Below the pieces are notes generated by a model. That model saw only the letters and a list, made by a program, of their open reading frames with translations, made no database searches and was not told the origin of the DNA. Positions 2,120-61,790 of a DNA stretch of 64,000 bases are shown one piece after another; positions within the stretch are counted from its first letter, which is position 1; each line of letters opens with the position of its first letter. The DNA is from Cherax quadricarinatus (taxonomy: Eukaryota; Arthropoda; Malacostraca; Decapoda; Parastacidae): NCBI RefSeq assembly GCF_038502225.1, contig NC_091357.1:5917500-5981499 (forward strand). Direction: 5' to 3'. Made by a program: the position numbers and the translations under genes.

Positions 2120-2265
2120 GGGTGATGGACTTACAGCGTCTTTACATCTCCATCGTTTCTGCTGCCTCCTTTGTATTCGGCTAAAGAAGCCTACTGTGCA
2201 GGCAAAACGTTTCGGAATAAAGATACCTAACTGTTGCACATTTGTCTTATCTACATAGGACATAC
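2120..2265 (+). mobile_element. Hammerhead-type fold-back element, copy 1 (partial)
   Basis: Single-arm copy. The core region at 2181-2211 reads CTAAAGA, then A, then a GCCTAC/GCAGGC hairpin with a short loop, then CAAAACGTTTCGG. It is followed by AATAAA at 2216-2221 and the family motif TGTTGCA. Relative to the family core, CTGAAGA has become CTAAAGA and GAAAC has become CAAAAC, so a ribozyme here would be dead. Confidence 0.6.
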
Positions 2266-2299
2266 AAGAGACAAAGGGTTAATAGTCCCCAGGAATGAT

Positions 2300-2500
2300 G
2301 TCGCATGTGGGCTGTCACACTCTTAGGTATGAATAAAGCTCGTCAGCCCCTCATCTGAGGGACTAATTATCTCATACTCCTCATCATCCTCTGTTATTTT
2401 CCGTATTGGACTGAAGAAGTCACTGGCTGGCGAAACGTTTAATCAGTAAAGATTCCCAAACGTTGCACAGATGTCTCATTCTTCAGTTTACCTTTGCTCG
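2300..2500 (+). mobile_element. Hammerhead-type fold-back element, copy 2 (single arm)
   Basis: Contains the family internal segment (GAGGGACTAATTATCTCATA at about 2358), the core CTGAAGA at 2411-2417, a stem II of GTCA/TGGC with a 5-nt loop, and GAAAC at 2432-2436. It continues with GTAAAGATTCCCAAACGTTG and a TCTCATTCTTC end. Core bases are intact, but the AATAAA position reads AGTAAA and the stem I partner region is poorly paired. Confidence 0.65.
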
Positions 2501-2689
2501 GTGAGAGACTAGTTATGACAGACAGGATCTTGAACCAGGAGTAGACTTCACATCTGATGAACTAGACACATGTCCAGCATAACAACATAAAGTGTTAAGT
2601 GCAATACTTGTGTAGTATTGCGTAAGTAATATTAAGAGATGCATTATTTAGTTTATAAGTATCATGGTTATTTACATTTCAGACGCTTA

Positions 2690-2784
2690 GAACTTTCCAT
2701 TTGTCTTTGTTAACCGCATCTGCCACTTCTCCGACCACTGCATCAGTCTATTCAGATCTTCCTGGAGTGCTCTAGTGTCCTCTG
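2690..2784 (-). pseudogene. CR1-type reverse transcriptase fragment, distal part
   Basis: The minus strand translates to a stretch like EDTRALQEDLNRLMQWSEKW, which is the region just after the catalytic FADD box in CR1 reverse transcriptases. It is separated from its upstream part (3086-3165) by an inserted SINE. It degenerates toward 2690. Confidence 0.6.
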
Positions 2785-3085
2785 GTGGCCCGGTGGCCTG
2801 GTGGCTAAAGCTCCCGCTTCACACACGGAGGGCCCGGGTTCGATTCCCGGCGGGTGGAAACATTCCGACACGTTTCCTTACACCTGTTGTCCTGTTCACC
2901 TAGCAGCAAATAGGTACCTGGGTGTTAGTCGACTGGTGTGGGTCGCATCCTGGGGGACAAGATTAAGGACCCCAATGGAAATAAGTTAGACAGTCCTCGA
3001 TGACGCACTGACTTTCTTGGGTTATCCTGAGTGGCTAACCCTCCGGGGATAAAAATCCGAACGAAATCTTATCTTATCTTATCTT
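2785..3085 (+). mobile_element. tRNA-derived SINE, family S1, copy 1
   Basis: The head is tRNA-like. A B box GGTTCGATTCC lies at 2837-2847, and an A-box-like TGGCTAAAGC at 2802-2811. The body (about 2860-3060) is shared base for base with 16832-17135. The 3' end is a (CTTAT)n tail at about 3066-3085. This is the organisation of a pol III-transcribed SINE mobilised by a LINE. It lies inside a minus-strand CR1 fragment. The 17-kb copy is nearly identical, suggesting recent activity. Confidence 0.85.
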
Positions 3086-3165
3086 ACCTCATCAGAGTGA
3101 ATTCGACGGTCTATTTTGGCGTCATCGGCAAACTTGCTTATTTCGCTATTTATACCTCTCATCTG
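3086..3165 (-). pseudogene. CR1-type reverse transcriptase fragment with FADD box
   Basis: The minus strand translates to EISKFADDAKIDRRIHSDE, the catalytic motif C (FADD) of a CR1-type reverse transcriptase. It continues across the inserted SINE into 2690-2784. It is only about 60 codons in total and is dead. Confidence 0.65.
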
Positions 3166-3189
3166 TGTATGTATCATCTAGGTAACTTG

Positions 3190-3330
3190 TAGACGTTTTC
3201 CGATCCAGTGGCTTTATTAAGACAATACATGCTTAATCTGAAGACTGTAGAAATATATACAGATGTGAAAAATGAGGTAATCAGTCTCTCAGCCTAGGCT
3301 GAGGGACTGATTACCACATTGCCCTTAAAC
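3190..3330 (-). mobile_element. Hammerhead-type fold-back element, copy 3 (remnant)
   Basis: The minus strand has a core-like AATAAAGCCACTGGATCGG followed by AAAACGTC, a degenerate form of the family core. The family internal segment GAGGTAATCAGTC (about 3273-3290) is followed at once by its inverted complement GGGACTGATTACC (about 3302-3315), a short fold-back. Confidence 0.5.
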
Positions 3331-3337
3331 AGGATAT

Positions 3338-4291: not shown

Positions 4292-4368
4292 TTATTAAAA
4301 TGCCTTATTCGGCAAGAAAAGCGTTGTTATTTAAGCCAAAATCGCAAGTTTTACCTGTTCGACACGAC
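4292..4368 (-). mobile_element. GTCGTGCCGAATA MITE, truncated copy
   Basis: The right end matches the terminus of the MITE at 52035-52410 in reverse orientation: AAATCGCAAGTTTTACCTGT, then CGACACGAC, flanked by a short TA run. Only about 77 bp of the roughly 376-bp element remain. Confidence 0.6.
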
Positions 4369-5546: not shown

Positions 5547-5849
5547 AATGTTGAGGTTGTTAGGTAAGACACATATGTAACAGTTAGGTATCTTTATTTC
5601 CAAACGTTTCACCTACACAGTAGACTTCTTCAGTCGAGTACAGAAAAGTTGATAGAAGAGACGTGAAGACGATGTAATCAGCACATCATCGTCTTCACGT
5701 CTCTTCTGTCAACTTTTCTGTACTCGACTGAAGAAGTCTACTGTGTAGGCGAAACGTTTGGAAATAAAGATACCTAACTGTTACATATGTGTCTTACCTA
5801 ATAACCTGTCGGTATTTTATTCCATTTTAATATCCAATGTTGAGGTTGT
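5547..5849 (+). mobile_element. Hammerhead-type fold-back element, copy 4, with 14-bp target duplication
   Basis: The element at 5561-5835 is bounded by AATGTTGAGGTTGT at 5547-5560 and again at 5836-5849. It is a near-perfect inverted repeat with arms of about 110 bp. Each arm carries a core: left arm on the minus strand (TCTTCAG at 5627-5633, GTTTC at 5606-5610), right arm on the plus strand (CTGAAGA 5728-5734, stem II 5736-5741 with 5745-5750, GAAAC 5751-5755). AATAAA follows at 5763-5768. The 3' end has TGTCGGTATTTTATTCC, the family terminal hairpin with one mismatch. Confidence 0.85.
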
Positions 5850-6025
5850 GTGCGTGTGTGTGTGATTGATCAGTTTCTAGGGTACTTATCAGTAGACACT
5901 TGGCCTCTTTTGTATGTGTGGCGCTCTTTGTGTGGGAAAATGAGCTCTAGCTCTTGGATCTCGTCACTTAACTAATACCCGACTTATTGCATCAACTCCA
6001 GAACCGGTAGATAAATGGGTCAGAG
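5850..6025. other. Unassigned DNA
   Basis: No gene or repeat recognised apart from a short GT run near 5850. Confidence 0.5.
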
Positions 6026-6303
6026 AACCGACAAGTTGACGATTGAGATACTTGAGCAATACTTGAGGGTCTTGTGGAAACGTTTCGCCAACATGTGGCT
6101 TCATCAATCGGTACAGAGATTAATGTACTTTTATCAAGATTGATGGACTGAACACATCGGCTCAAGGCTGAGGGACTGATTACCTCAAACTACTCCTCAT
6201 CTTCCACCATTCATCTTTGTACGGAACTGAGGAAGTCGCTTGTTGGCGAAGCGTTTCCACAATAAAGGTCCCCAAGTGTTGTACAAGTATCTCAATCATC
6301 AAC
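6026..6303 (+). mobile_element. Hammerhead-type fold-back element, copy 5
   Basis: It opens with AACCGACAAGTTG, the reverse of the family 3' end. A left-arm core on the minus strand is TGATGA, hairpin, GAAACGTTTCC. The internal segment GAGGGACTGATTACCTCAAA is at about 6169. The right-arm core CTGAGGA, hairpin, GAAGCGTTTCC, is followed by ACAATAAAGG. One arm has lost C3 and the other has GAAG instead of GAAA. Ends are approximate and no clean target duplication was seen. Confidence 0.7.
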
Positions 6304-6859: not shown

Positions 6860-7976
6860 CACCTGGAGGTTACCTGGATGTTATTCCGGGGATCAACGTC
6901 CCCGCGGCCCGGTCCACGACCAGGCCTCCCGATGGATCAGGGCCTGATCAACTAGGCTGTTACTGCTGGCCGCACGCAGTCCAACGTACGAGCCACAGCC
7001 CGGCTGATCCGGCACTGACTAGGCATCTGTCCAGCTCTCTCTTGAAGGCAGCCAGGGGTTTATTGGCAATTTCCCCTAATGCTTGATGGGAGGCTGTTGA
7101 ACAGTCTTGGGCCCCGGACACTTACGGTGTTTTCCCTTAGTGTACCAATGGCGCCCCTACTTTTAATTGGGGGCATTTTGCATCGCCTGCCCAGTCTTTT
7201 ACTTTCGTAGGGAGTGATTTCTGTGTGCAGATTTGGGACCATTCCTTCCAAGATTTTCCAAGTGTAGATTATGATATATCTCTCCCTCCTGCGTTCCAAC
7301 GAGTACAAGTCAAGTGCTTCCAAGCGTTCCCAGTAGTTAAGGTGCTTGACAGAACTTATACGTGCAGTAAAGGATCTCTGTACACTCTCTAGATCTGCGA
7401 TTTCACCTGCTTTGAATGGAGATGTTAATGTACAGCAGTATTCCAGCCTAGAGAGAACAAGTGATTTGAAAAGTATCATCATTGGCTTGGCATCTCTCGT
7501 TTTGAACGTTCTCATTATCCATCCTATCATTTTCTTTGCACGTGCGATCGTGGCACTGTTGTGATCCTTGAAAGTGAGATCCTCAGACATTACTACTCCC
7601 ATGTCCCTTACATTATTTTTCCGCTCTATTTTATGGCCGGAGTCAGTAGTATACTCTGTTCTAATTATTATCTCCTCCAGTTTTCCATAACGGAGTAGTT
7701 GGAATTTGTCCTCATTGAGCATCATATTGTTTACCGTTGCCCACTGGAAAACTTTGTTTATATCTTCTTGGAGGTTAACCGCGTCCTCAGCAGATGACAG
7801 CCTCATGCAGATCCTAGTATCATCCGCAAAGGATGATACGGTCCTGTGGTGTATATCTCTGTCTATGTCTGATATGAGGATGAGGAATAAGATGGGGACG
7901 AGTACTGTGCCTTGTGGAACAGAGCTCTTCACTATGGCAGCCTCCGATTTAACTCTGTTGACCACTACTCTTTGTG
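6860..7976 (-). pseudogene. LINE-D reverse transcriptase, 3' two-thirds
   Basis: Minus-strand reverse transcriptase of a CR1/L2-like (Jockey superfamily) non-LTR element. Visible motifs: RVVVNRVKSEAA, SVPQGTVLVPILFLILISDI (motif B region), SSFADDTRIC (catalytic motif C), LQEDINKVFQWA, RYGKLEE, and a C-terminal domain ending PRLFNSLPSSIRG. A single extra A near 7072-7078, relative to the copy at 39222-41060, shifts the frame before the expected C-terminus. The element is 5'-truncated and interrupted at 7977 by a fold-back insertion. The 3' untranslated end (GGCCGCGGGGACGTTGATCC on the minus strand) matches the other copies. Confidence 0.85.
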
Positions 7977-8679
7977 ATGAATGGTTTTGAAAACCGACAA
8001 GTTGAAGAATTGAGACACTTATGCAACACATGGGAATCTTTATTGAAGAAACGTTTCGCCACACAGTGGCTTCATCTGTCCTATACAAAGTAGAAATGGG
8101 TAAGGAGAGTAGAAGTATGAGGTAATCAGTCCCTCAACCTGGATTCGATGTGTTTAGCCCATCACTCTTGTAGTAAGTGCATCATAGGGCCAGAGAGGTG
8201 CCTCATATACTGCGGTGAGATGAGTTGAAGCAGGAGGAGGCGGGATCACAGTGGGACCTGCCACTAATGTAAGTAGGTCATCGTCCAAAGGTTTGGGCAA
8301 GCGTTGAAGTCTTTGTACCAAGATTCCATGATGTTGCAGTGTCTGACAGATGTGATGAATGGTTTTGAAAACCGACAAGTTGAAGAATTGAGACACTTAC
8401 ATTAGTGGCAGGTCCCATTAAGATCCCGCCTCCTCCTGCTTCAACTCATCTCACCGCAGTATATAAGCCACCTCTCTGGCCCTATGCTGCACTTACTACA
8501 AGAGTGATGGACTGAACACATCGAATCCAGGTTGAGGGACTGATTACCTCATACTTCTACTCTCCTTACCCATTTCTACTTTGTATTGGACTGATGAAGC
8601 CACTGTGTGGCGAAACGTTTCTTCAATAAAGATTCCCATGTGTTGCATAAGTGTCTCAATTCTTCAACTACTCTTTGTG
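7964..8679 (-). mobile_element. Hammerhead-type fold-back element, copy 6, 690 bp with 13-bp target duplication
   Basis: The element occupies 7977-8666 and is flanked by ACTACTCTTTGTG at 7964-7976 and 8667-8679. The uninterrupted LINE-D copy near 39955-39975 has this sequence once, proving the insertion and its ends. The 3' end in minus orientation contains GGTTTTCAAAACC (7983-7995). Inverted arms flank a centre with a TATATAA box at 8460-8466 (+). The right arm keeps a complete hammerhead-like core (8591-8619) and AATAAA (8625-8630). The left-arm core on the minus strand has CAGATGA, so U4 is lost. Confidence 0.9.
8583..8630 (+). ncRNA. Predicted hammerhead ribozyme (minimal type I), best-preserved core
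   Basis: CTGATGA at 8591-8597; an extra A at 8598; stem II GCCAC 8599-8603 with GTGGC 8607-8611 and loop TGT; GAA at 8612-8614; A15.1-C15.2 then G-U, giving a GUU cleavage triplet ending at 8619. Stem I would pair 8620-8622 with 8588-8590 and 8625-8628 with 8584-8587, leaving a 2-nt bulge. GAAACGTTTC is self-complementary, so stem III is minimal or forms by dimerisation. An extra A after A9 is, from memory, known in a viroid hammerhead. Self-cleavage is not shown by sequence alone. Confidence 0.55.
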
Positions 8680-9084: not shown

Positions 9085-9400
9085 TTTAATGCATGGTGGA
9101 AAACTAAATACACAAATGTAGTATAATGCGATCCTTCGTTGACTACGTTTCGCCCACACAGTGGATTTTATCAAGTGACAAACGGATCTAAATGGGTAAA
9201 CATGTATACGTTCAGGTAGGTTTGTGAGGACGGGTTCTGGTCTGGGTCTTCTCTATGTGGTGACCTGGCAGTGGCTCCTGAAGGAGTGTCAGAGTTGGTA
9301 CAAGTAGTCTACCGTTTACAGCCCTGTGGCAAAGGCACGGTCAACTGGGTAAAGAGTACGGGATTATATATAGGGCAGAGTCAGGTGGAGAAGGTTGGGT
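9085..9400 (-). mobile_element. Hammerhead-type fold-back element, copy 7, GTAGTC subfamily
   Basis: The minus-strand core TTGATAA, A, TCCAC/GTGGG stem with TGT loop, GAAACGTAGTC lies at about 9138-9175. A TATATATAA box at about 9365-9375 on the same strand lies upstream. It is closely related to the plus-strand copy at 18290-18400. C3 and G8 are replaced, so activity is unlikely. Ends approximate. Confidence 0.55.
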
Positions 9401-9974: not shown

Positions 9975-10101
9975 CTTCTTGTATTTGAAGATTGAGACAC
10001 TTATGCAACATATGGGAATCAATAAAGATTCCCATATGTTGCATTAGTGTCTCAATCTTCAACTTGTCGGTTTTCAAAACCATTCTTCACTTCTTGTATT
10101 T
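9975..10101 (+). mobile_element. Minimal 103-bp palindromic member of the fold-back family, with 12-bp target duplication
   Basis: The element at 9987-10089 is flanked by CTTCTTGTATTT at 9975-9986 and 10090-10101. It consists of a stem of about 35 bp (TTGAGACACTTATGCAACAT and its inverse) around AATAAA, followed by the family 3' end CTTGTCGGTTTTCAAAACC (hairpin 10069-10081). The hammerhead core is absent, showing that it is not needed in cis for the final insertion. Confidence 0.85.
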
Positions 10102-13402: not shown

Positions 13403-13933
13403 ATGTATGAAGCCGTGCAAGAAAGGTATAAAATACCGACAATATGAAAGTTAAGACACATGTGCAACATCTGGATATCTTTATTGTAGTAGACGTTTCG
13501 CCATCCAGTGGCTTTATCAATACAGATTCTAGGACATAATAGGAAGACAGTAGAACTATATACAAAAGATGAGGTAATCAGTCCCTCGGCCTTGGAGTTA
13601 GTGTTCACAGCATCGTGGTGGAGGAGAATCTGGAGCAAAGACAAGAAGACTGGCGGTTTATATAGGCGTCAGTGGATAGGGACGGGCAGCAGACGAGGGC
13701 AAAGTCACTGGTAGGCGGGATTCCCCAGTGGAAGTAGTAGGTCCTTGTAGATGTTCCCAAAATGAGCAGTGGGCCACTGGATAGTTGCAGCAGCCGTGAA
13801 GGTCTTGTAGATGTCCTCTGAACCAAGATTCCATGATGTTGCAGTGTCTGATAAAGCCACTGGATGGCGAAACGTCTACTACAATAAAGATATCCAGATG
13901 TTGCCATGTGTCTTAACTTTCATGTATGAAGCC
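13403..13933 (-). mobile_element. Hammerhead-type fold-back element, copy 9, 507 bp with 12-bp target duplication
   Basis: The element at 13415-13921 is flanked by ATGTATGAAGCC (13403-13414 and 13922-13933). In minus orientation it has a TATATAAA box (13658-13665), the internal GAGGGACTGATTACCTCATC segment, a core ATTGATAAAGCCA/TGGCGAAACGTCTACTAC, AATAAA, and a 3' end with GGTAT-TTT-ATACC (13425-13437). The right arm repeats a core with CTGATAA at 13850-13876. G8 of the hammerhead core reads A in both arms, but the cleavage triplet would be GUC. Confidence 0.85.
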
Positions 13934-13970: not shown

Positions 13971-14424
13971 ATATAATTTTCATTCAGGAAACGTTTCGCC
14001 ACACAGTGGCTTCATCCGTCCAATACAAAGAGGAAGGCGTAAGGAGAGGAGGAGTATGAGGTAATCAGTCCCTCAGCCTGGAGTCGATGTGTTCAGTCCA
14101 TCAATCTTGTAGAATGTGGAGAGGAGGAGTATGAGGTAATCAGTCCCTCAGCCTGGAGTCGATGTGTTCAGTCCATCAATCTTGTAGAATGTGGAGAGGA
14201 GTATGAGGTAATCAGTCCCAAGATTGATGGACTGAACACATCGACTCCAGGCTGAGGGACTGATTACCTCATACTCCTCCTCTCCTTACGCCTTCCTCTT
14301 TGTATTGGACGGATGAAGCCACTGTGTGGCGAAACGTTTCCTGAATAAAGATTCCCATATGCTGCATAAGTGTCTCAATCTTCAACTTGTCGGTTTTTCA
14401 AACCATTCATCACATATAATTTTC
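13971..14424 (+). mobile_element. Hammerhead-type fold-back element, copy 10, 432 bp with 11-bp target duplication
   Basis: The element at 13982-14413 is flanked by ATATAATTTTC (13971-13981 and 14414-14424). The left arm starts abruptly at the AATAAA/core region, as in a 5'-truncated retroelement. A segment of about 75 bp (GAGGAGTATGAGGTAATCAG onward) is tandemly repeated at 14045-14215. The right arm carries CGGATGA, hairpin GCCAC/GTGGC, GAAACGTTTC, AATAAA, and the 3' hairpin GGTTTTTCAAACC (14392-14404). Confidence 0.85.
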
Positions 14425-14593
14425 GTTACAACTCTGTGATGATGGAGATATCTTCATAAAAGTTACATTTGTGGTGTGCTGAGAGATGGTAATTGTCAAG
14501 TGATAGTAACTGTAGCTCTGCTGGAAGGTTACCTTTGATGCTGTCGTAGCTGATGACCCTTTAATGGTATACTTGAGCATATCCTCATTGTCC
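14425..14593. other. Unassigned DNA
   Basis: No gene or repeat recognised. Confidence 0.5.
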
Positions 14594-16470
14594 TACTGAA
14601 GTCTGCCACCTCTGTCTGACACTACTGAAGTCTGCCACGTCTGTCTGACACTACTGAAGTCTGCCACCTCTGTCTGACACTACTGAAGTCTGCCACCTCT
14701 GTCTGACACTACTGAAGTCTGCCAACTCTGTCTGACACTACTGAAGTCTGCCACCTCTGTCTGACACTACTGAAGTCTGCCACCTCTGTCTGACACTACT
14801 GAAGTCTGCCCCCTCTGTCTGACACTACTGAAGTCTGCCACCTCTGTCTGACACTACTGAAGTCTGCCCCCTCTGACACTACTGAAGTCTGCCACCTCTG
14901 TCTGACACTACTGAAGTCTGCCCCCTCTGTCTGACACTACTGAAGTCTGCCACCTCTGTCTGACACTACTGAAGTCTGCCCCCTCTGTCTGACACTACTG
15001 AAGTCTGCCACCTCTGTCTGACACTACTGAAGTCTGCCACCTCTGTCTGACACTACTGAAGTCTGCCCCCTCTGTCTGACACTACTGAAGTCTGCCACCT
15101 GTCTGACACTACTGAAGTCTGCCACCTCTGTCTGACACTACTGAAGTCTGCCACCTGTGACACTACTGAAGTCTGCCACCTCTGTCTGACACTACTGAAG
15201 TCTGCCACCTCTGTCTGACACTACTGAAGTCTGCCCCCTCTGACACTACTGAAGTCTGCCCCCTCTGACACTACTGAAGTCTGCCACCTCTGTCTGACAC
15301 TACTGAAGTCTGCCCCCTCTGTCTGACATTTCTGAAGTCTGCCACCTGTCTGACACTACTGAAGTCTGCCCCCTCTGTCTGACACTACTGAAGTCTGCCC
15401 CCTCTGTCTGACACTACTGAAGTCTGCCCCCTCTGTCTGACACTACTGAAGTCTGCCACCTCTGTCTGACACTACTGAAGTCTGCCACCTCTGTCTGACA
15501 CTACTGAAGTCTGCCACCTCTGTCTGACACTACTGAAGTCTGCCCCCTCTGTCTGACACTACTGAAGTCTGCCACCTCTGTCTGACACTACTGAAGTCTG
15601 CCACCTCTGTCTGACACTACTGAAGTCTGCCCCCTCTGTCTGACACTACTGAAGTCTGCCACCTGTCTGACACTACTGAAGTCTGCCACCTCTGTCTGAC
15701 ACTACTGAAGTCTGCCACCTCTGTCTGACACTACTGAAGTCTGCCACCTCTGTCTGACACTACTGAAGTCTGCCACCTCTGTCTGACACTACTGAAGTCT
15801 GCCACCGCTGTCTGACACTACTGAAGTCTGCCACCTCTGTCTGACACTACTGAATTCTGCCACCTCTGTCTGACACTACTGAAGTCTGCCACCTGTCTGA
15901 CACTACTGAAGTCTGCCACCTCTGTCTGACACTACTGAAGTCTGCCATCTCTGCCTGACACTACTGAAGTCTGCCATCTCTGCCTGACACTACTGAAGTC
16001 TGCCACCTCTGCCTGACACTACTGAAGTCTGCCACCTCTGCCTGACACTACTGAAGTCTGCCACCTCTGTCTGACACTACTGAAGTCTGCCACCTCTGAC
16101 ACTACTGAAGTCTGCCCCCTCTGTCTGACACTACTGAAGTCTGCCACCTCTGACACTACTGAAGTCTGCCCCCTCTGTCTGACACTACTGAAGTCTGCCA
16201 CCTCTGACACTACTGAAGTCTGCCCCCTCTGTCTGACACTACTGAAGTCTGCCCCCTCTGTCTGACACTACTGAAGTCTGCCACCTCTGTCTGACACTAC
16301 TGAAGTCTGCCACCTCTGTCTGACACTACTGAAGTCTGCCACCTCTGTCTGACACTACTGAAGTCTGCCACCTCTGTCTGACACTACTGAAGTCTGCCCC
16401 CTCTGACACTACTGAAGTCTGCCACCTCTGACACTACTGAAGTCTGCCAACTCAGGCTGATACTGCTGAA
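14594..16470. repeat. 29-bp minisatellite, about 65 copies, with 24-bp variants
   Basis: The unit begins CTGAAGTCTGCCACCTCTGT and ends CTGACACTA. A 5-nt deletion (loss of GTCTG) gives recurring 24-bp units, and CCACC/CCCCC variants alternate. The last units (16440-16470) decay into single-copy sequence. Reading frames through it are repeat artefacts. Confidence 0.97.
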
Positions 16471-16831
16471 GTCTGCTAAAGAAATATATATCTTTGGAAA
16501 ACAGTGCGGTAGGTCGAATGCCGGTACTGGCCTTGTCTTTACGATACGCCAGATTTCATAGCGTCAGATTTTACCCTATTTTATTTTAACCATATTAGAT
16601 ACAGACTCAGGGTTTAACAACCCTTGTACTATATTACAATTACATAGTGGGAAAATCGGCTGTACGCGGCTACCATATTCTGTATGATACAGTGGCAGTG
16701 TTCTGCGACACTATTCTGTATGAGTTGCATTGTGTGAGCACCCACAGTTTACTGCTACATTGTTGTATATGATAGTTACGTTGTGGAACACCCACAATTT
16801 ATTGCTCCCTTATTCTGTATGATGGTTAGGT
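16471..16831. other. Unassigned DNA
   Basis: A weak degenerate repeat of ATTCTGTATGATACAG-like blocks occurs about every 55 bp at 16675-16830; nothing else recognised. Confidence 0.5.
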
Positions 16832-18028: not shown

Positions 18029-18289
18029 CTAGGTCTTATTCGACTTTGACACTATACATGTAGTGCAACGGGCAAACTTGTGTATGTGAGACTTCATGGA
18101 AGGGACATACCTCTTCAGAATACACCGTGGTAGGGGTTGCTGAACCCATTGCCAGGAAACTTCTTCATCGTTATCCCACATAACGTAAACACTCGCACGT
18201 CCCGTGCAGGTCCGTCTCAGATCCTGCCTACCCAACATTCTCCACCTGACTCTCCACCCTGTATATACTCGTGTACTCTACCCAGGCAG
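18029..18289. other. Unassigned DNA
   Basis: May include the upstream part of the next fold-back copy (TATATAC near 18262); no gene recognised. Confidence 0.4.
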
Positions 18290-18400
18290 ATCTGTTTGTA
18301 ACATGATAAAGTCCACTGTGTGGGCGAAACGTAGTCAATAAAGGATCGCGTTATACTGCATTTGTGTCTATTCTTCCGTCAGTCTTCAACCTGACCACAT
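18290..18400 (+). mobile_element. Hammerhead-type fold-back element, copy 12, GTAGTC subfamily
   Basis: Core ATGATAA, A, GTCCAC/GTGGGC hairpin with TGT loop, GAAACGTAGTC (about 18303-18342), then AATAAAGGATCGCG. Related to 9085-9400. C3 and G8 are changed. Confidence 0.6.
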
Positions 18401-23055: not shown

Positions 23056-23954
23056 TAAAGCACACATTTAACTGAGGTAAGAAAGAAAAGGAGATACGTA
23101 ATAAGAAATAGATCATGCATGAACAAGTAGACAGCACCTTGGGTCACCTAGCACTCACCTGGGGTCACCTGCGACACGCCTGGTAGTCACCTGGGGTCAC
23201 CTTGGACACTCCTAGTGGTCACCTCGCCGGCTATATACCTCGTACCTGAAACGTTGCACTGAAAAGTAGGAATTTTAGAGATTTTTCACTCACATTGAGA
23301 ACTAATTAAGTATTTTATAAAGGCCCATTGGGGGTGAAACGTCGTGAAACAGAGCTAAAAGTGCCTTTCAAATAGCCACTTACTGTCTACCTTTGGACTG
23401 TCTCTGGTGTACTGACAGACACTTAAGAAGTGGTGTGTGTTTGTGGTTTCTTTGAATGTGTGTGTGTGTGTGTTTGCACATATATGTGCTTCTTTGTGAG
23501 TGTTTTTTGTACGTTTGTGTACATATCTTTGCTCAGTCCTTCACTTCCTCACCTGAACCGTCATCACGCTACGGTTCTACAATCTCTGTCAGGAAAAACA
23601 ATACAAAACAATCATCTCAGACAACTGCTAGTTTGTGTCATGTCTATTGTCTAGATAGACCGCTTCATGCCCTAATTCTCAAACATTCACATCTTTCATA
23701 AGTAAGACCATAAACACACAAAGGAAACATTGTGGCAATAGTCCAGAAGGGACCGGTCCAGGACCTACTGGTCCAGGACCCACCGGAATGTCGTTTGAAG
23801 ATTTATGGATAACCTGAGGATGATTTGTGAATTGTTAGTCACGGTATTGTGGCTCTTCTCACGGCAATACAATGTTAAAAAAAATGAGGGGAATAATGCT
23901 TTGTAACGAAAATAATAATGATAGTCATTGTTTTAATAACGTAATGAAAGTGAT
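23056..23954. other. Unassigned DNA
   Basis: Short repeats of CACCTGGGGTCACCT at 23145-23230 and a GT run at about 23456-23472; nothing else recognised. Confidence 0.5.
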
Positions 23955-24222
23955 TTTCAAAAGTGACAAGTTGAAGACTGAGATACTTGTATAACATTTG
24001 CAAATCTTTATTCAGGAAACGTTTCGCCACACGGTGCCTTCTTCAGTCCAATATATTTCTCAAGATTGACGGACTGAACACATCGACTCCAGGCCGAGGG
24101 ACTGATTACCTCAAACTCCCATCTTCCACTGTTATTCTCTGTGTTGGAATGAAGAAGCCGCTGGCTGGCGAAACATTTCCTCGGTAAAAGATTCCCAAAT
24201 GTTGCACAAATGCCTTGTTCTT
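23955..24222 (+). mobile_element. Hammerhead-type fold-back element, copy 13
   Basis: It opens with TTCAAAAGTGACAAGTTGAA (reverse of the family 3' end). The left-arm core on the minus strand (CTGAAGA at 24040-24046, GAAAC at 24021-24025) keeps all core bases. The central GGACTGAACACATCGACTCC is followed by GAGGGACTGATTACCTCA. The right arm has ATGAAGA, hairpin, GAAACATTTCC, with C3 lost. No clear target duplication. Confidence 0.75.
24003..24060 (-). ncRNA. Predicted hammerhead ribozyme core in copy 13, left arm
   Basis: Minus strand: CTGAAGA, A, GGCAC/GTGGC stem II with one G-G mismatch and loop CGT, GAAACGTTTCC, then TGAATAAAG. Stem I pairs TCC with GGA next to the core and AATA with TATT further out, with a 2-nt bulge between, the same layout as at 8583-8630. 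Confidence 0.45.
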
Positions 24223-24447
24223 CAATAGTAATAATAAATTTTTAAAATTTTCACTAAGTTTTCGTCGTATTTTTTTAAGCATTTGTTTACGTTTGTAGTG
24301 AGATAAAAAAAAAGAATCAAGTAATTTTGATAGAATTTATTAATTTCTCTTCATTTTGACAGGTTCATTATGCAGTGTAAATAATGTGGTATGAATAATA
24401 GTTATGTATTTTGAAAATAATTGTTAGATATTCCAGGTAGGATTTGA
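24223..24447. other. Unassigned AT-rich DNA
   Basis: No gene or repeat recognised. Confidence 0.5.
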
Positions 24448-28844: not shown

Positions 28845-28985
28845 ATCGGTTTAGAAAACCTGCAGTTTGATGAATGAGACACTTATGCAACAGTATCTTC
28901 ACTCTGGACTGAAGAAGATACTGCCTGGCGAAACGTTTCCAGAATAAAGATACCTAAATGTTGCACAAGTGCTTCATTAATCCAG
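28845..28985 (+). mobile_element. Hammerhead-type fold-back element, copy 14
   Basis: Left part TTGATGAATGAGACACTTAT and GCAACAG, then a plus-strand core with CTGAAGA at 28909-28915, a poorly paired stem II, and GAAAC at 28930-28934, followed by GTTTCCAGAATAAAGATACC and TGTTGCACAAGTG. A short member. The core bases are intact but stem II is broken. Confidence 0.65.
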
Positions 28986-29342
28986 TTGTCTGCGTCATTC
29001 ATCGGTTTAATAATTCATGTAGTCTTAATTCACTGTTTGTGTTTCCCAAATAACACTGGCAACATATGTAGGTAAAACTGTATAAACAACACTTGTGTAA
29101 GAAAGTGAGGTTCATTATCATGTGTCATAGTATATTTGGGTATTGTAATTGTCATTATTTCGGCTGATATTCTTATTAATAACATAGAATAGCAGCAGTA
29201 GTAGTAGTAATAGTAGTAGCAATAATAGTAGTAATGGTAATTTTAAAGTTTCTTGACTTTGATCTTGAAGTTAAATTCCTTCAACTCTTTTATTTACAAT
29301 CTTGGAGACTAATATAGACTGATCTATTATTTATTTATTTTT
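28986..29342. other. Unassigned AT-rich DNA
   Basis: (TAG)n-like stretch at about 29195-29230; no gene recognised. Confidence 0.5.
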
Positions 29343-38570: not shown

Positions 38571-38624
38571 AACTTCGTGAGTAATTTTTACAAAAAGAAC
38601 AAATAAACTGTATTGTACCGTTAT
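38571..38624. other. Spacer between arrays
   Basis: Unique AT-rich spacer. Confidence 0.5.
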
Positions 38625-39030
38625 GCCAACCTTGGTCACTACAACCTTGGTCACTACAACCTTGGTCACTACAACCTTGGTCACTACAACCTTGGTCACT
38701 ACAACCTTGGTCACTACAACCTTGGTCACTACAACCTTGGTCACTACAACCTTGGTCACTACAACCTTGGTCACTACAACCTTGGTCACTACAACCTTGG
38801 TCACTACAACCTTGGTCACTACAACCTTGGTCACTACAACCTTGGTCACTACAACCTTGGCCACTACAACCTTGGCCACTACAACCTTGGCCACTACAAC
38901 CTTGGCCACTACAACCTTGGCCACTACAACCTTGGTCACTACAACCTTGGTCACTACAACCTTGGTCACTACAACCTTGGTCACTACAACCTTGGTCACT
39001 ACAACCTTGGTCACTACAACCTTGGTCACT
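38625..39030. repeat. 15-bp minisatellite, 27 copies
   Basis: Unit ACCTTGGTCACTACA. Five consecutive units at about 38857-38932 read CTTGGCCACTAC, a homogeneous block inside otherwise identical copies. Open frames are artefacts of the 5-codon unit. Confidence 0.97.
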
Positions 39031-39221
39031 ACACCTCACCAACACAAGTCACTACACCTCACCAACACACCAACACAAGTCACTACACCTCACCAACACA
39101 CCAACACAAGTCACTACACATCACCAACACACCAACACAATTCACAACACCTCACCAACACAAGTCACTATACCTCACCAACACAATTCACTATACCTCA
39201 CTAACACAAGTCACTTTACCT
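39031..39221. repeat. 23/31-bp minisatellite, left part of the array split by LINE-D
   Basis: ACCTCACCAACACAAGTCAC units with optional ACACCAAC 8-bp additions. The same repeat resumes at 41061. Confidence 0.9.
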
Positions 39222-43094: not shown

Positions 43095-45660
43095 CACTGT
43101 TTAGATTTGCGGGAGTGGGAGGAGGGGGGCGGGTGGTGGTTGATGGAGTAGGGGCACAGAGAGGTGAGTGGGGGAGGGGGCGGTGGAGAAAGGAGTAGTA
43201 GGGACACAGAAAGGTGAGTGGGGGAAGGGGGAGGAAGGAGTAAGGGGGACACAGGAGGTGAGGTGAGGGGGAGGGGGTAAGGAGTAGGTGGCACAGGAAG
43301 GTGAGTGGGGGGAGGGGGAAGGAGTAAGTGGCACAGGAAGGTGAGTGGGGGGAGGGGGAAGGAAGAGGTGGCATAGGAAGGTGAGTGGGGGAAGGAGTAA
43401 GTGGCACAGGAAGGTGAGTGGGGGGAGGGGGAAGGAAGAGATGGCACAGGAAGGTGAGTATGGGGAGGGGGAAGGAGTAAGTGGCACAGGAAGGTGAGTG
43501 GGGGAGGGGGGAAGGAAGAGGTGGCACATGAAGGTGAGTGGGGGGCGGGGGGAAGGAAGAGGTGGCACAGGAAGGTGAGTGGGGGTAGGGGAAGGAGTAA
43601 GTGGCACAGGAAGGTGAGTGGGGGGAGGGGGAAGGAGTAAGTGGCACAGGAAGGTGAGTGGGAGGGAGGGGGAAGGAGTAAGTGGCACAGGAAGGTGAGT
43701 GGGGGTAGGGGAAGGAGTAAGTGGCACAGGAAGGTGAGTGGGGGGAGGGGGAAGGAGTAAGTGGCACAGGAAGGTGAGTGGGGGGAGGGGGAAGGAGTAA
43801 GTGGCACAGGAAGGTGAGTGGGGGGGGGGGAAGGAGTAAGTGGCACAGGAAGGTGAGTGGGGGAGGGGGAAGGAGTAAGTGGCACAGGAATGTGAGTGGG
43901 GGAGGGGGAGAGGAGTAAGTGGCACAGGAAGGTGAGTGGGGGGAGGGGGAAAGAGTAAGTGGCACAGGAAGGTGAGTGGGGGGGAGGGGGAAGGAGTAAG
44001 TGGCACAGGAAGGTGAGTGGGGGGAGGGGGGAGGAGTAAGTGGCACAGGAAGGTGAGTGGGGGGGGAGGGGGAAGGAGTAAGTGGCACAGGAATGTGAGT
44101 GGGGGAGGGGGAGAGGAGTAAGTGGCACAGGAAGGTGAGTGGGGGGAGGGGGAAAGAGTAAGTGGCACAGGAAGGTGAGTGGGGGGGAGGGGGAAGGAGT
44201 AAGTGGCACAGGAAGGTGAGTGGGGGGGAGGGGGGAAGGAGTAAGTGGCACAGGAATGTGAGTGGGGGAGGGGGAGAGGAGTAAGTGGCACAGGAAGGTG
44301 AGTGGGGGGGAGGGGGAAAGAGTAAGTGGCACAGGAAGGTGAGTGGGGGGGAGGGGGAAGGAGTAAGTGGCACAGGAAGGTGAGTGGGGGGAGGGGGGAG
44401 GAGTAAGTGGCACAGGAAGGTGAGTGGGGGGAGGGGGGAGGAGTAAGTGGCACAGGAAGGTGAGTGGGGGGAGGGGGGAGGAGTAAGTGGCACAGGAAGG
44501 TGAGTGGGGGGAGGGGGGAGGAGTAAGTGGCACAGGAAGGTGAGTGGGGGGGAGGGGGAAGGAATAAGTGGCACAGGAAGGTGAGTGGGGGGAGGGGGAA
44601 GGAGTAAGTGGCACAGGAAGGTGAGTGGGGGGAGGGGGAAGGAGTAAGTGGCACAGGAAGGTGAGTGGGGGGAGGGGGAAGGAGTAAGTGGCACAGGAAG
44701 GTGAGTGGGGGGAGGGGGAAGGAGTAAGTGGCACAGGAAGGTGAGTGGGGGGGAGGGGGAAGGAGTAAGTGGCACAGGAAGGTGAGTGGGGGGAGGGGGG
44801 AGGAGTAAGTGGCACAGGAATGTGAGTGGGGGAGGGGGGAGAGGAGTAAGTGGCACAGGAAGGTGAGTGGGGGGGGAGGGGGAAAGAGTAAGTGGCACAG
44901 GAAGGGGAGTGGGGGGGAGGGGGAAGGAGTAAGTGGCACAGGAAGGTGAGTGGGGGGAGGGGGGAGGAGTAAGTGGCACAGGAAGGTGAGTGGGGGGAGG
45001 GGGGAGGAGTAAGTGGCACAGGAAGGTGAGTGGGGGGAGGGGGGAGGAGTAAGTGGCACAGGAAGGTGAGTGGGGGGAGGGGGGAGGAGTAAGTGGCACA
45101 GGAAGGTGAGTGGGGGGGAGGGGGAAGGAATAAGTGGCACAGGAAGGTGAGTGGGGGGAGGGGGGAGGGGGAAGGAGTAAGTGGCACAGGAAGGTGAGTG
45201 GGGGGAGGGGGGAGGAGTAAGTGGCACAGGAAGGTGAGTGGGGGGAGGGGGAAGGAGTAAGTGGCACAGGAAGGTGAGTGGGGGGAGGGGGCAGGAGTAA
45301 GTGGCACAGGAAGGTGAGTGGGGGGAGGGGGAAGGAGTAAGTGGCACAGGAAGGTGAGTGGGGGGGAGGGGGAAGGAGTAAGTGGCACAGGAAGGTGAGT
45401 GGGGGGAGGGGGAAGGAGTAAGTGGCCCAGGAAGGTGAGTGGGGGGAGGGGGAGAGGAGTAAGTGGCACAGGAAGGTGAGTGGGGGGAGGGGGAAGGAGT
45501 AAGTGGCACAGGAAGGTGAGTGGGGGGAGGGGGAAGGAGTAAGTGGCACAGGAAGGTGAGTGGGGGGGAGGGGGAGAGGAGTAAGTGGCACAGGAAGGTG
45601 AGTGGGGGGGAGGGGGAGAGGAGTAAGTGGCACAGGAAGGTGAGTGGGGGAGAGGGGGTA
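43095..45660. repeat. 40-bp G-rich minisatellite, about 60 copies
   Basis: The unit contains AGGAAGGTGAGTGGGGGGAG followed by GGGGAAGGAGTAAGTGGCAC. Length varies mainly in the two G runs. Each plus-strand unit carries a consensus-like 5' splice site (AAG followed by GTGAGT) and a second AGTAAGT. Because the unit is near 40 bp, all three minus frames stay open for 800-1000 codons (Pro/Ser/Leu/His-rich), an artefact. Confidence 0.97.
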
Positions 45661-46247: not shown

Positions 46248-47855
46248 ACCTACCTGGAGTCTACCTGCAGGGTATTACGCCCCCGCGGCCTGCTCAATGA
46301 CCAGGCCTCCCGGTGGATCAGGGCTTGATCAACGAGGTTGTTACTGCTGGCCGCACGTAGTCCAACGTACGAACCACAGCCAGGCTGATTAAGTACTGAC
46401 TTCAGGTATCTGTCCATTTCCTTCTTGAAAACAACCATGGGTCTATTGGTAATGCCCCTTATGGCTGTGGGAGGCTGTTGAACAGTCTTGGGCCCCGGAT
46501 ACTTATTGTGTTTTCTCTTAGTGTACCAGTGACGCCCCAACTTTTCACTGGGGGTATGTTGCATCGCCTGCCAAGTCTTTTGCTTTCGTAGGTCGTGATT
46601 TCTGTGTGCAGATTAGGAACCAGTCTCTCCAGAATCTTCCAGGTGTAGATTATGATAAATCTCTCTCTCGCCTGAGCTCTAGTGAGTACAGGTCAAGTGC
46701 TTCCAGGCGCTCCCAATATTTAAGGTGTTTGATGGAACATACGTGCAGTAAAGGTTCTCTGTACATTTTCTAGCTCTGCAATTTCACCTGCCTTGAATGG
46801 AGATGTTAATGTACAGCAGTATTCCAGCCTAGAGAGGACAAATGATTTAAAAAAGGATCATCATTGGCTTACCATGTCTTGTCTTGAATGTTCTCATTAT
46901 TCATCCTATCAATTTCCTAGCAGATGTGATAGTGGCATTGTTGTGGTCCTTGAAGGTGAGGTCCTTCACATTACTTTTCTGTTATTTCCTCGAGTTTTCC
47001 ATAACGGAGTTGGAGTAGTCTTCAGTGAACATCACATTGTTCTCCGTTGCTCATTGGAAAATTTGGTATATATCTTCTTGGAGATTTGCCGTGTCCTCAA
47101 TGGATGACACTCTCATGTGGATCGTCTGCAAAGGATGAAACAGTGCTGTGGTTTACATCTCTGTCTGTGTCTGATATGAGGATGAGGAACAGGATGGGGG
47201 CGAGTACTGTGCCTTGTGGAACAGAGCTCTTCACTATGGCAGCTTCCGATTTAACTCTGTTTACCACTACTCTTTGTGTTCGATTGGTTAGAAAGTTGAA
47301 GATCCATCTGCCTACTTTGCCAGTTATACCTTTAGCACGCATTTTGTGTGCTATTACACTATGATCACACATGTCAAAGCTTTTGCAAAATCTGTGTATA
47401 CTACATCTGCATTCTGTTTGTTTGCCAGTGCATCTAAGACCATATCATAGTCCAGTAGTTGCGAGAGGCAGGAGTGACCTGTTCTGAAACCATGTTGCCC
47501 TGGATTGTGCAATTTTTTGGACTCCAAGTGGTTTGCTATCCTGCTTTTTTTTAGTATGTGGGACGTTAAAGCTATTGGTCTACAGTTCTTAGTTACGGTT
47601 TTGCTGTCACCTTTATGGAGTGGGGGTATATCCGTTATTTTTAGTGACTGTGGAATCTCACCTGTGTCTGTGCGCCTTCTCCATAGCATACTTAGGGCCC
47701 GTGACGGGTATCTTGCAGTTCTTTATGAACACAGAGGTCCATGACTCTGGGCCTGGTGCTGAGTGCATGGGCATATCGCTAATGGCTCTCGCAAAGTCTA
47801 GTGGAGTAAGGGTTATGTCAGAAATTTGGCATACATTGGCTGGGTTTTGAGGCTC
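46248..47855 (-). pseudogene. LINE-D reverse transcriptase, degenerate copy
   Basis: Minus-strand copy of the LINE-D RT. Recognisable pieces include LWRRRTDTGEIPQSLKITDI, NPGQHGFRTGHSCLSQLLDY, VIAHKMRAKGITGKVGRWIF, SVPQGTVLAPILFLILISDT and GCGSYVGLRAASSN, scattered over at least three frames. Several frameshifts and deletions, including loss around FADD. The 3' end differs (GGTATTACGCCCCCGCGGCC in plus orientation), marking an older subfamily. It ends 5' at nearly the same point as the 39-kb copy. Confidence 0.85.
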
Positions 47856-58941: not shown

Positions 58942-59034
<93 letters not shown>

Positions 59035-59835: not shown

Positions 59836-60469
59836 AGATTGGGTCCCTGACTACTCTGGTCTCGAAGAACTCTAGCCCCAGCCTCATTTACCTTCTTATA
59901 GACTTCATTGCCCACCATCCTTCACGGGATAGGGGTTTCTCTGTACCGGATATAAAAGTTCTTCTTTTGGAGTTCTTGTTGACCTTACTGGATGATGAAT
60001 GAGTCTGCAACATGCCACATGAGTGCTTTGACGGGCGAAGACATCGGTTTCAGTTCCTTGTATCTGGATTTCAGGTGGTTGTCCAGAATTTGTATGGCAG
60101 CGAATGTTTGCCCACCTGTCAGAAACTGTTTTTTTCCTCTGCGTGAAAACTTGAAGCAGTGGACTACTGCCCTCTTGTGCCCCGAGTACGTGTCACTCGT
60201 GACCTCGGAGATTTCCACTATATACAAAGTGCTTATGATTATTTAGTGGAAGTCGCCCTGGGGACTGTAGGGGCTGATATGCCTCACTCACACAGCTTGT
60301 AGTCTCTTCCGTCAGTACCCTGCTGCAACAAAAGCTGTAAGCACCATTGACGAATCGCCTGATAAGCCTGTCGCCGCCTGTGACAAACCTGTTCACCGTA
60401 CGACCTGGATCCATTACGTGGAAGGAGAAAGTCTTCACCCACCCTTAACCTGAAGTGAATTTTGAACAA
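59836..60469 (-). pseudogene. Unrecognised minus-strand coding-like region with a splice-donor-like end
   Basis: Minus frames of 81 codons (from 60438; FSFHVMDPGRTVNRFVTGGD) and 80 codons (from 60227; HCFKFSRRGKKQFLTGGQTF, then SRYKELKPMSSPVKALMWHV) follow one another with a frame change near 60195-60230. Composition is protein-like, not repeat-like. CTGGAG followed by GTAAGT on the minus strand at about 59830-59836 looks like a donor. A faint resemblance to nucleotidyltransferase-fold or Mab-21-type C-termini is too weak to name. Confidence 0.3.
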
Positions 60470-60504
60470 AATTAAAAACGTCCAAAAATAAAGAATAGAA
60501 AGTC

Positions 60505-60605
60505 ACAATACCGTGACTGGAACAATACACAAATAACCCGCACATTGGAGAAAGAAACTTAGGACGACGTTTCGGTCCGACTTGGTCCACGTCGGACCGA
60601 ACTAT
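60505..60605 (+). repeat. Dispersed fold-back repeat F2, copy 2
   Basis: ACAATACCGTGACTGGAACA, ATAACCCGCACATTGGAGAA, and a perfect 11-bp hairpin TTCGGTCCGAC (60571-60581) with GTCGGACCGAA (60591-60601). On the minus strand the hairpin runs into CGAAACGTC, again a GAAACGTC junction. Confidence 0.55.
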
Positions 60606-60799
60606 CATTCAAGGTTGTGAACTGCCATACAAGGTTGTCTATCATACAAGGCTAACTACCATACAATGTTTACCATGTAAGGTGAACTACCATGCAAAGT
60701 TGTGAACCACTAACACCTTTGAGCTGGCTCGCCTGGTGTATTCAGGCCTAGCTAACATCAATGACATATAGAAAGCCGCTCATTATGTAGAGTATTTCG
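60606..60799. other. Unassigned DNA
   Basis: Short repeats of ACCATACAAGG-like blocks at 60600-60710; no gene recognised. Confidence 0.5.
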
Positions 60800-60990
60800 G
60801 GCAAATTAGGTCAGTTTTGTCCCAGGATGCGACCCATGCCAGTCGACTAACACCCAGATACCCATTTTACTGATGGGTGAACATGGACAACCAGTGTAAG
60901 GAAACACGCCCAGTGTTTCTTCCCTCGCTGGGAATCAAACCTTGACCCTCAGCGCGTGAAGCACTCTCCAGAGTGCAGTTCTGTTGGTTG
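60800..60990 (-). mobile_element. tRNA-derived SINE, family S1, diverged copy 3
   Basis: Reverse orientation: TGTCCCAGGATGCGACCCAT, GTCGACTAACACCCAGATAC and GAATCAAACCTTGACCCTCA (degraded B-box region). About 75-80 percent like the other two by eye and lacking the pentamer tail, so older. Confidence 0.7.
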
Positions 60991-61104
60991 CCGTCATCTA
61001 CAGATTCTCTCTCCTTTTTTTTCTCTTTTCGCTCTCTTTTCTCTTTCTCTCCGCCTGATCGTTTGTATCTAAGAGGGAGCCACTAGCCGTTGCATTCCCT
61101 AGCG
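60991..61104. other. CT-rich spacer
   Basis: TCTCTTTTCTCTTTC-type tract at 61010-61050. Confidence 0.6.
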
Positions 61105-61258
61105 ATATCTATCCTCCAGTAAGATTTGTCAGGAAACAGGACAAGTGTTTCCTGAAGCCGGTCTTAGTCATATACTGACCCGCTACTGGAGCTTTTGGTC
61201 ATCTGACCGAAGCCTTCCACTGGCTTACCCTTTCACTCCTTTAAAAATTATGGTTATA
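61105..61258 (-). repeat. Dispersed repeat R3, copy 3
   Basis: Reverse complement of the 33376 and 42455 copies: GGAAACAGGACAAGTGTTTC, GGAGCTTTTGGTCATCTGAC and CCACTGGCTTACCCTTTC. Confidence 0.65.
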
Positions 61259-61564
61259 ACCATTTTTTATCTGTATGGCATTCGGGGCTGCGGCACTGCC
61301 TGTTTGAGCGCTTCTTGCATGCAAAAGATTTTCCCCGGAGGTGGTCCCGCAGGGCAGTGTCTTGAGCAGTTAGTGTTTTATTATGGTCGTTGTTGTCCCT
61401 GATAAGTCGGTTTTAAGACTTCCACATTTCGTTACTTTGTATAAGAAACTCATTCTGCGTAATGGAATGCGACAGAGAAGCATAGCTAGCCTTCTTTTGC
61501 TATTATTGTGTATCATTCAGAATAGAGTAACAGTACACTGCGGGTGTTTTCCAGTATTATTTAG
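61259..61564. other. Unassigned DNA
   Basis: No gene or repeat recognised. Confidence 0.5.
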
Positions 61565-61790
61565 TAAGAGTTGATGAGTAAGACACGTGCAACAATTGGG
61601 TATCTTTATTATTGAAATGTTACCCCTGCACAGTAGGCTTCTTCAGTCAGATAGAGGCAGAAGGTGTGGTAGTGAAAAGATGATGTAATCCGTTCATCAA
61701 CCTTGGTGAAATAGTATCTGAGGTGGTCAGACCAACTGTTGCACATGTCTTATCAACTTGTCGGTATTTTATACAATTTTCAACATTTAA
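61565..61790 (+). mobile_element. Hammerhead-type fold-back element, copy 15
   Basis: The left arm on the minus strand has a core-like CTGAAGA, A, GCCTAC/GCAGGG and GTAACATTTC (61617-61655), with GAAAC degraded. It ends CAACTTGTCGGTATTTTATACA, a 3' hairpin GGTAT-TTT-ATACa. ATTTAGTAAG and ATTTAATAAA flank it and could be a decayed target duplication. Confidence 0.6.

What the first reader, a model, noticed from the sequence alone, without database searches (positions are those of the whole stretch)
2120..61790. Dispersed fold-back family carrying hammerhead-ribozyme-like cores
About sixteen copies (for example 5561-5835, 7977-8666, 13415-13921, 13982-14413, 23955-24222) share CTGANGA, one extra A, a 4-6 bp hairpin, then GAAACGT(T/C)TC. 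The hairpin covaries between copies: GCCAC/GTGGC, GTCTAC/GTAGGC, GTCA/TGGC, GCCTAC/GCAGGC. This is the hammerhead core with a minimal, self-complementary stem III. Established knowledge: minimal type I hammerheads occur in Penelope-like elements and in their non-autonomous relatives, animal retrozymes. That these copies belong there is inference. Most copies have lost one core base; 8591-8619 has none lost.
Basis: partly seen in the sequence, partly recalled or inferred. Interest (0 to 1): 0.92.

Follow-up and report, generated by a model that had tools for sequence, protein, structure and literature searches.

The report
Penelope-borne hammerhead variant with extra base
The repeats are pieces of Penelope-type retrotransposons carrying a hammerhead-ribozyme-like RNA whose core occurs over 100,000 times in this probably crustacean genome, and nearly all copies examined have one extra base where textbook hammerheads have none.

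Summary
Six of eight window elements examined have 11-16 bp target-site duplications, and the exact core occurs 126,094 times in the genome against 49 for a reversed control. The elements are non-autonomous Penelope-like (PLE) terminal repeats: head-to-head arms, a one-sided 31-34-nt tail, and, elsewhere in the genome, tandem 378-bp monomers like animal retrozymes. A complete PLE (RT + GIY-YIG) in the same genome carries the same module. The RNA has hammerhead architecture: in 115 copies found with positions 3, 7, 8, 9a, 17 and the stems left free, 3-8 are C-G (63) or U-A (46), and stem I pairs 1-3 form in 110-112. H17 is G in 0 of 115 (1 of 127 in a second set). It departs from the textbook: one extra nucleotide between A9 and stem II (A in 114 of 115), stem III possible only between two copies, and no Rfam match. 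A mussel-symbiont contig and a MAG contig with PLE-like RT matches show the same extra position. Catalysis is untested, insertion 5' ends show no cleavage footprint, and no ORF was found with the repeats of the window's main families. The two likeliest prior papers could not be read; novelty is uncertain.

The parts
5561..5835 (.). fold-back element, 14-bp target-site duplication; cores 5601-5633 (-) and 5728-5760 (+)
6006..6296 (.). older fold-back element, 16-bp duplication with 1 mismatch; cores 6077-6107 (-) and 6227-6257 (+)
7977..8666 (.). fold-back element, 13-bp duplication: full 378-nt monomer (-) aligned at 7980-8357, joined to an inverted arm aligned at 8395-8669 (+); cores 8048-8078 (-) and 8591-8621 (+)
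8591..8621 (+). intact hammerhead-variant core CTGATGA-A-GCCAC/GTGGC-GAAACGTT, predicted cut after 8619
   Evidence: cut position read from the sequence
9987..10089 (.). minimal 103-bp head-to-head element with 12-bp duplication, truncated 3' of the core, so without ribozyme
13415..13921 (.). fold-back element of family D, 12-bp duplication; cores 13490-13520 (-), U3-A8, and 13848-13878 (+), C3-A8 mismatched
13982..14413 (.). fold-back element, 11-bp duplication; cores 13988-14018 (-) and 14310-14340 (+), both with U4 changed to G
23951..24230 (.). decayed fold-back, cores 24016-24046 (-) and 24149-24179 (+); no duplication found
28854..29000 (.). decayed element, core 28909-28939 (+), weak 9-bp duplication
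2097..2485 (+). two decayed copies, best matching families B and A, cores 2181-2213 and 2411-2441
61567..61780 (.). decayed remnants of the family
18139..18377 (+). terminal-repeat relic of PLE family C, with a 45-nt piece that covers the end of its ORF; core at 18303
9097..9196 (-). terminal-repeat relic of PLE family C, core at 9144

Best explanation
The elements are non-autonomous derivatives of Penelope-like retrotransposons: terminal-repeat monomers with a TATA-like box (seen by eye), a hammerhead-variant RNA, and a tail stem-loop about 48 nt downstream of the predicted cut. PLE reverse transcriptase-endonucleases encoded elsewhere in the genome move them in trans (inferred). The enzyme starts copying at one of two sites flanking the tail and works from both ends of the target cut; the two copies join head-to-head, which gives the fold-back with the tail on one side (inferred from end positions and from published work on an anole PLE). 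The hammerhead-variant pairs stems I and II in cis and can pair stem III only between two copies, as in tandem monomers or dimers. It is expected to cut after U16.1-H17 and trim oligomeric transcripts into monomers, possibly circles, with help from the PLE protein (inferred; I put actual cutting at about 0.6).
For: Complete PLE in L049: 793-aa ORF with RVT_1 2.5e-10 and GIY-YIG 6.9e-8, direct terminal repeats 98.8% identical, and an inverted head-to-head copy. A core lies within 700 nt downstream of 34 of 42 GIY-YIG ORF ends, 32 of them at 165-286 nt, mostly one family. 3' ends are two-peaked: family C (59 hits) 18 at 303-304 and 19 at 334-336; family B (71 hits) 10 at 315-317 and 17 at 349-351. 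Duplications in 6 of 8 window elements. Tandem monomers 99.2-100% identical within three arrays. Covariation: 115 copies, 3-8 C-G 63 and U-A 46, stem I pairs 1-3 in 112, 111 and 110, H17 T 95, C 11, A 9, G 0; a second set of 127 without the AATAAA requirement gave C-G 71, U-A 50, other 6, H17 G 1; a 31-row alignment is 89.1% paired against 69.5% shuffled and 23-52% slid; on a tree built without the core the U-A label needs 4 changes, 3 of them forced by well-supported branches.
Against: No catalysis or RNA data. The extra nucleotide breaks the consensus in which stem II directly follows A9. Rfam finds no hammerhead even at E<=10. 5' ends of insertions are not enriched at the predicted cut: 1 within one base of it among 225 hits, edge-cut ones not counted. 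On the two measures that relatedness inflates least, one search is weak: pairs with a change on both sides 6 against 4.4 (27 of 500 shuffles as high), further pair types 13 against 11.1 (74 of 500). The distal part of stem I beats shuffles clearly only in family C (9 of 300); A 68, B 195, C2 81, D 248, E 184, F 64 of 300. Unconstrained dimers of A and C prefer a fold other than the double hammerhead. No ORF with the repeat of families A, B or D was found. A near-identical small fold-back recurs at different sites, so head-to-head joining is not always a fresh event.
Confidence: 0.8

Rival explanations
1. The RNA is only a binding or start signal for the PLE reverse transcriptase. Its two stems are under selection but it does not cut.
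For: In an anole PLE, ribozyme mutants inserted normally in vitro and no reads began or ended at the cut site (PMC11167929). No cleavage footprint in insertion ends here. The extra base should disturb the core.
Against: A binding hairpin does not explain the switching of positions 3-8 between C-G and U-A, the near absence of G at 17, the invariant U16.1, or the 15.2-16.2 letters AU in the mussel-symbiont contig where this genome has CG.
Confidence: 0.15
2. The ribozyme was active in ancestors and is dead in this genome; copies hitchhike.
For: Most window copies have lost core or stem bases. The extra base is fixed.
Against: Exact cores of two types stand at 126,094 and 70,333 places, and paired changes separate several families.
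Confidence: 0.13
3. Fold-back or MITE-like DNA transposons with terminal inverted repeats.
For: Inverted arms at the ends of the elements.
Against: Duplication length varies from 11 to 16 bp, one arm has an extra tail, head-to-tail tandem monomers occur, and the same module flanks RT/GIY-YIG ORFs.
Confidence: 0.02

Closest known systems
Hammerhead ribozymes of Penelope-like elements (Cervera and de la Pena 2014; Lunse et al. 2017; neither read, known through citing papers and recall)
   Same: Minimal hammerhead in PLE terminal repeats, little or no stem III, dimers invoked (passages of PMC6155905, PMC6466107)
   Different: One extra nucleotide between A9 and stem II in the copies examined here; whether those papers show it I could not check
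Animal retrozymes (Cervera and de la Pena 2020, PMC7229834; abstract and passages)
   Same: Non-autonomous tandem repeats (reported at ~170-400 nt) with type I hammerheads; crustaceans are named among hosts
   Different: Here the monomer carries a PLE-type tail, occurs in head-to-head fold-backs, and has the 9a variant core; circular RNA not tested
Poseidon PLE of Anolis, PAc (PMC11167929, parts 1-2 of 4 read)
   Same: Terminal repeats with hammerhead, two RT start sites separated by a tail, both DNA strands cut and extended
   Different: [quoted passage not shown] in L049 the first in-frame ATG lies about 100 nt after the predicted cut, beyond the tail (counted by hand)
Penelope elements of Adineta vaga (PMC3846280, passages)
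   Same: Head-to-head inverted terminal repeats, 31-bp tail on one side, short duplications, TATA box
   Different: Duplications of 8-10 bp in the passages seen, against 11-16 here; the word hammerhead does not occur in that text

Membership tests
Penelope-like element terminal repeats | RT plus GIY-YIG ORF flanked by the same cis module in this genome | tested here: met
   Met for family C (L049) and, with a GIY-YIG ORF end only, family E (L011); no ORF with the repeat of families A, B or D was found
Penelope-like element terminal repeats | head-to-head inverted repeats with one-sided ~30-40-nt tail | tested here: met
Penelope-like element terminal repeats | short target-site duplications | tested here: met
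   6 of 8 window elements, 11-16 bp
Animal retrozyme | head-to-tail tandem monomers of a few hundred nt with a type I hammerhead | tested here: met
   378-bp monomers in L013, L022, L031; 421-bp spacing at C1:4624655-4626783; none in tandem in the window apart from a partial unit next to the monomer at 7980-8357
Animal retrozyme | small circular RNAs | not testable with these tools
   no RNA data
Hammerhead ribozyme (textbook consensus) | core C3 U4 G5 A6 N7 G8 A9 ... G12 A13 A14 A15.1, U16.1 H17, with 3-8 paired | tested here: met
   109 of 115 paired at 3-8, counting U3-A8 as the alternative reported in nature (PMC3088659); U4, G5, A6, A9 and GAAA were required by the search, so their conservation is not tested by it
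Hammerhead ribozyme (textbook consensus) | pair 10.1-11.1 directly after A9 | tested here: not met
   strict scan: 0 with no extra nucleotide, 75 with one, 0 with two
Hammerhead ribozyme (textbook consensus) | three stems in one molecule | tested here: not met
   no room for stem III in cis (read from the sequence; folds); palindromes ACGU or AAUU only
Hammerhead ribozyme (Rfam models) | match to an Rfam hammerhead family | tested here: not met
   window, a piece of L049, and L177; no positive control was run, L176 not searched
Hammerhead ribozyme | self-cleavage | not testable with these tools
   no assay or RNA data

The most novel reading that the evidence does not exclude
PLE hammerheads form a distinct, ancient hammerhead class with a fixed extra nucleotide (9a) between A9 and stem II and a stem III that exists only in dimers. 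The extra base keeps the free RNA inactive, and the PLE protein switches it on, so that cutting is coupled to loading of the template.
Probability: 0.3. Interest if true: 0.75.

Novelty: new variant of a known kind. Interest (0 to 1): 0.55.

Why it matters
What hammerheads do for Penelope elements is open: in the one purified system that I could read about, the ribozyme cut only when the protein was present and was not needed for insertion in vitro (PMC11167929). A family with over 100,000 exact cores, several covarying subfamilies and tandem arrays gives a testable system. The fixed extra base, which the Rfam models did not recognise here and which one published survey's filter would reject (PMC3088659), may explain why such RNAs go unannotated and why they may depend on a protein or on dimers.

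Tried and rejected
Rfam searches on the window, on short stretches and on L177: no hammerhead. Footprint of cleavage in insertion 5' ends: not seen, 1 within a base of the cut among 225 hits. PLE relatives in viral contigs: none of 43 candidates. N-terminal stretches of the 69 relatives of 740 aa or more, out of the 120 listed of 709: no trace of the core, since nearly all the predictions start at Met. The genome-wide counts of C3-G8, C3-A8 and U3-G8 cores in the same pattern frame as U3-A8, which would have been the cleanest test of the 3-8 pair, did not complete. Random-region density: one fold-back pair of PLE family C in L173, an end piece in L172, and short weak matches in L050 and L173, over six 10-kb regions of one contig, with no match in shuffled copies; too few for an estimate. 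A TATA-like box and the tail hairpin were seen by eye only.
Full report
What is there. The window holds 16 well-scoring copies (15 of them used to build the profile) and several fragments of one repeat module. Several are arranged as head-to-head pairs, bounded by target-site duplications of 14, 13, 12, 12 and 11 bp, plus one of 16 bp with one mismatch. That is 6 of 8 elements tested; the other two gave 9 bp and none. The window lies in a 3.95-Gb genome in which the exact pattern occurs 126,094 times, against 49 for the pattern read backwards. The sister pattern TTGANAAAN{9,16}GAAACGTY occurs 70,333 times against 164. It is looser than the first, so the two counts are not directly comparable; the matching count for CTGANGAA did not complete.

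Host. Among the 120 listed relatives of a PLE protein from this genome, those with names are from Cherax quadricarinatus (54% over 56% of the query), Oratosquilla, Penaeus and Portunus, so a decapod or near relative is likely (inference). Penelope elements are already reported at a mean of 2.3% in Astacidea (PMC10454600, passages).

The element. One complete PLE, L049, has a 793-aa ORF with RVT_1 and GIY-YIG, two direct terminal repeats at 98.8% identity, and an inverted copy joined head-to-head. A core of the same design lies within 700 nt after 34 of 42 GIY-YIG ORF ends examined, at 165-286 nt in 32 of them; most of these ends belong to one PLE family. Insertion 3' ends fall into two peaks 31-34 nt apart in families C (18 and 19 of 59 hits) and B (10 and 17 of 71). 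Family A (95 hits) ends at 346 (8), 355-358 (13) or at the end of the query unit (33); some of these hits are cross-family local matches. This matches the optional 'tail' and two RT start sites described for the anole PLE (PMC11167929, parts 1-2 of 4 read) and the one-sided 31-bp tail in Adineta (PMC3846280, passages). The tail motif TGTCGGTNTT, one mismatch allowed, lies 45-51 nt after the predicted cut in 60 of 127 copies. Many of the rest presumably end before it (inference).

Monomers. In L013 two full and one partial 378-nt unit stand head to tail and are 100% identical. Units within the L022 and L031 arrays are 99.2-100% identical, one L022 unit with a 16-nt deletion. Units from different places are 85.7-98.3% alike, apart from one pair at 100%. 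This suggests that one array stems from repeated copying of one template (inference; later homogenisation is not excluded). The window element 7977-8666 contains one such monomer. No ORF carrying the repeat of families A, B or D was found in the stretches read, so movement in trans by other PLEs is inferred, not shown.

The RNA. I searched 333 kb of this genome (fetched loci and window, with overlaps; identical contexts counted once), requiring only TGA..A, GAAACG(T/C) and AATAAA close behind; positions 3, 7, 8, 9a and 17 and all stems were left free. This gave 115 distinct copies. Positions 3-8 are C-G in 63, U-A in 46 and other in 6. The base after A9 is A in 114. Position 17 is T 95, C 11, A 9, G 0. 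Stem I pairs 1-3 form in 112, 111 and 110 copies; pair 4 in 78. A second set of 127, without the AATAAA requirement but with stem II of 4 or more pairs, gave C-G 71, U-A 50, other 6; base after A9 A 125, T 2; position 17 T 108, C 9, A 9, G 1. Many loci were fetched through the CTGANGA pattern or through PLE proteins, which biases the mix of families.

Covariation. Across 40 distinct strings (11 copies with under 3 stem II pairs dropped first), 0 of 1000 shuffles reach the pairing of stem I pairs 1-3, of 3-8, or of stem II pairs 3-5. Stem I pair 4 is weak (66 of 1000), and stem II pairs 1, 2 and 6 say nothing. On 31 of these strings aligned by MAFFT, 8 countable pairs are 89.1% formed against 69.5% in shuffles (0 of 500) and 23-52% when slid; the two measures least inflated by relatedness are only mildly raised (27 and 74 of 500 shuffles as high). 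On a tree of the flanks without the core, the U-A label needs 4 changes, 3 of them forced by well-supported branches; the tree has few columns, long branches and an unsettled bootstrap.

Folds. Up to three folds per family were printed. Families B and C (and C2) give stems I and II around an open core in one or two of them, and F in one. Family A forms both stems but with four added core pairs; D and E fold otherwise. The distal part of stem I is better than shuffles only in C (9 of 300; the others 64-248 of 300).

The departures. A strict scan that demands the hammerhead pairs finds 0, 75 and 0 copies with 0, 1 and 2 extra nucleotides after A9 in the same 333 kb, and none in 1.08 Mb of viral control DNA. 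The same scan finds one place (listed twice, at two stem lengths) in L176, a Bathymodiolus symbiont assembly contig that encodes a PLE (RVT_1 and GIY-YIG), probably from the host (inference). It has U3-A8, extra A, and a stem III palindrome AAUU where this genome has ACGU. It also finds one in L177, a MAG contig with a weak PLE RT match (25% identity; no Pfam hit): C3-G8, extra C. Shuffles gave any hit in 1 of 1000 and 0 of 1000. I first noticed the L177 core and the L176 core by eye, before writing the scan. So the extra nucleotide is probably old in PLE hammerheads (inference from two contigs). A published survey describes core insertions elsewhere and rejected hits with mispairing next to the core (PMC3088659, section 8 and passages); those passages mention no insertion at this place. 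I recall similar vertebrate repeats with the extra A, but no call supports that.

How it may work. Stem III can form only between two copies, by a 4-nt palindrome. Forcing it gives a plausible double hammerhead for family C, but the unconstrained dimer prefers another fold (-49.7 against -42.9 kcal/mol; A -36.9 against -31.5; B equal). Tandem monomers would supply two copies in one RNA. In the anole PLE the ribozyme cut only when the protein was present, and its mutants inserted normally (PMC11167929). I therefore think cutting is dimer- and protein-assisted and serves RNA processing rather than the insertion step itself (inference). Against it: insertion 5' ends are not enriched at the cut. 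A further use is suggested by AATAAA, which begins 3-6 nt after the predicted cut in 116 of 127 copies (expected 0.007 per copy). In the folds that form stem I it falls in or beside the internal loop, so the site may switch between polyadenylation and ribozyme folding (speculation).

Known or new. PLE hammerheads with little or no stem III, and retrozymes in crustaceans, are in print (PMC6155905 passages; PMC6466107 passages; PMC7229834 abstract and passages). The listings of searches (titles and starts of abstracts, open-access library) showed no decapod hammerhead report and nothing on an extra base at 9a; the library lacks the two most relevant papers. I therefore file the elements as PLE terminal repeats with retrozyme-like tandem forms, and the RNA as something that is built like, and probably works like, a hammerhead but fails the textbook definition at two tested features and the Rfam models.

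Noticed in passing
L178, L179, L180 (G000:C1 near 5523, 4617924, 4910545); also C1:7411791: A near-identical small fold-back of family E, with the palindromic centre AAGCTT between two cores 2 nt apart, sits at different sites; short duplications of about 11-12 bp are read by eye in three. The fold-back itself seems to multiply.
   Followed up: partly
L022 1620-2930: A three-monomer tandem plus inverted arm inserted as one unit into a PLE GIY-YIG gene, with a 12-bp duplication read by eye (printout).
   Followed up: partly
127 copies in window and genome loci: AATAAA begins 3-6 nt after the predicted ribozyme cut in 116 of 127 copies, across families that share little else.
   Followed up: partly
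L176 and L177: Both contigs repeat their ends (by eye), as if taken from tandem or circular PLE copies, in assemblies labelled as bacterial.
   Followed up: no
L017 (- strand): One core with G3 and C8 (GTGATCA), the pair type that partly rescued cleavage in the anole PLE (PMC11167929); a single copy.
   Followed up: no
window 7060-8133 (-): The fold-back at 7977-8666 lies at the edge of a LINE-type reverse transcriptase frame that reads open into it (by eye).
   Followed up: no
window 1-914, 14593-16476, 33979-35549, 36974-38562, 43205-45658: Long minisatellite arrays of 28, 29, 32, 27 and 40-bp units.
   Followed up: no
window 29728-31893 (-), 38585-41037 (+), 47097-47722 (-): Frames resembling LINE reverse transcriptases, by eye.
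   Followed up: no
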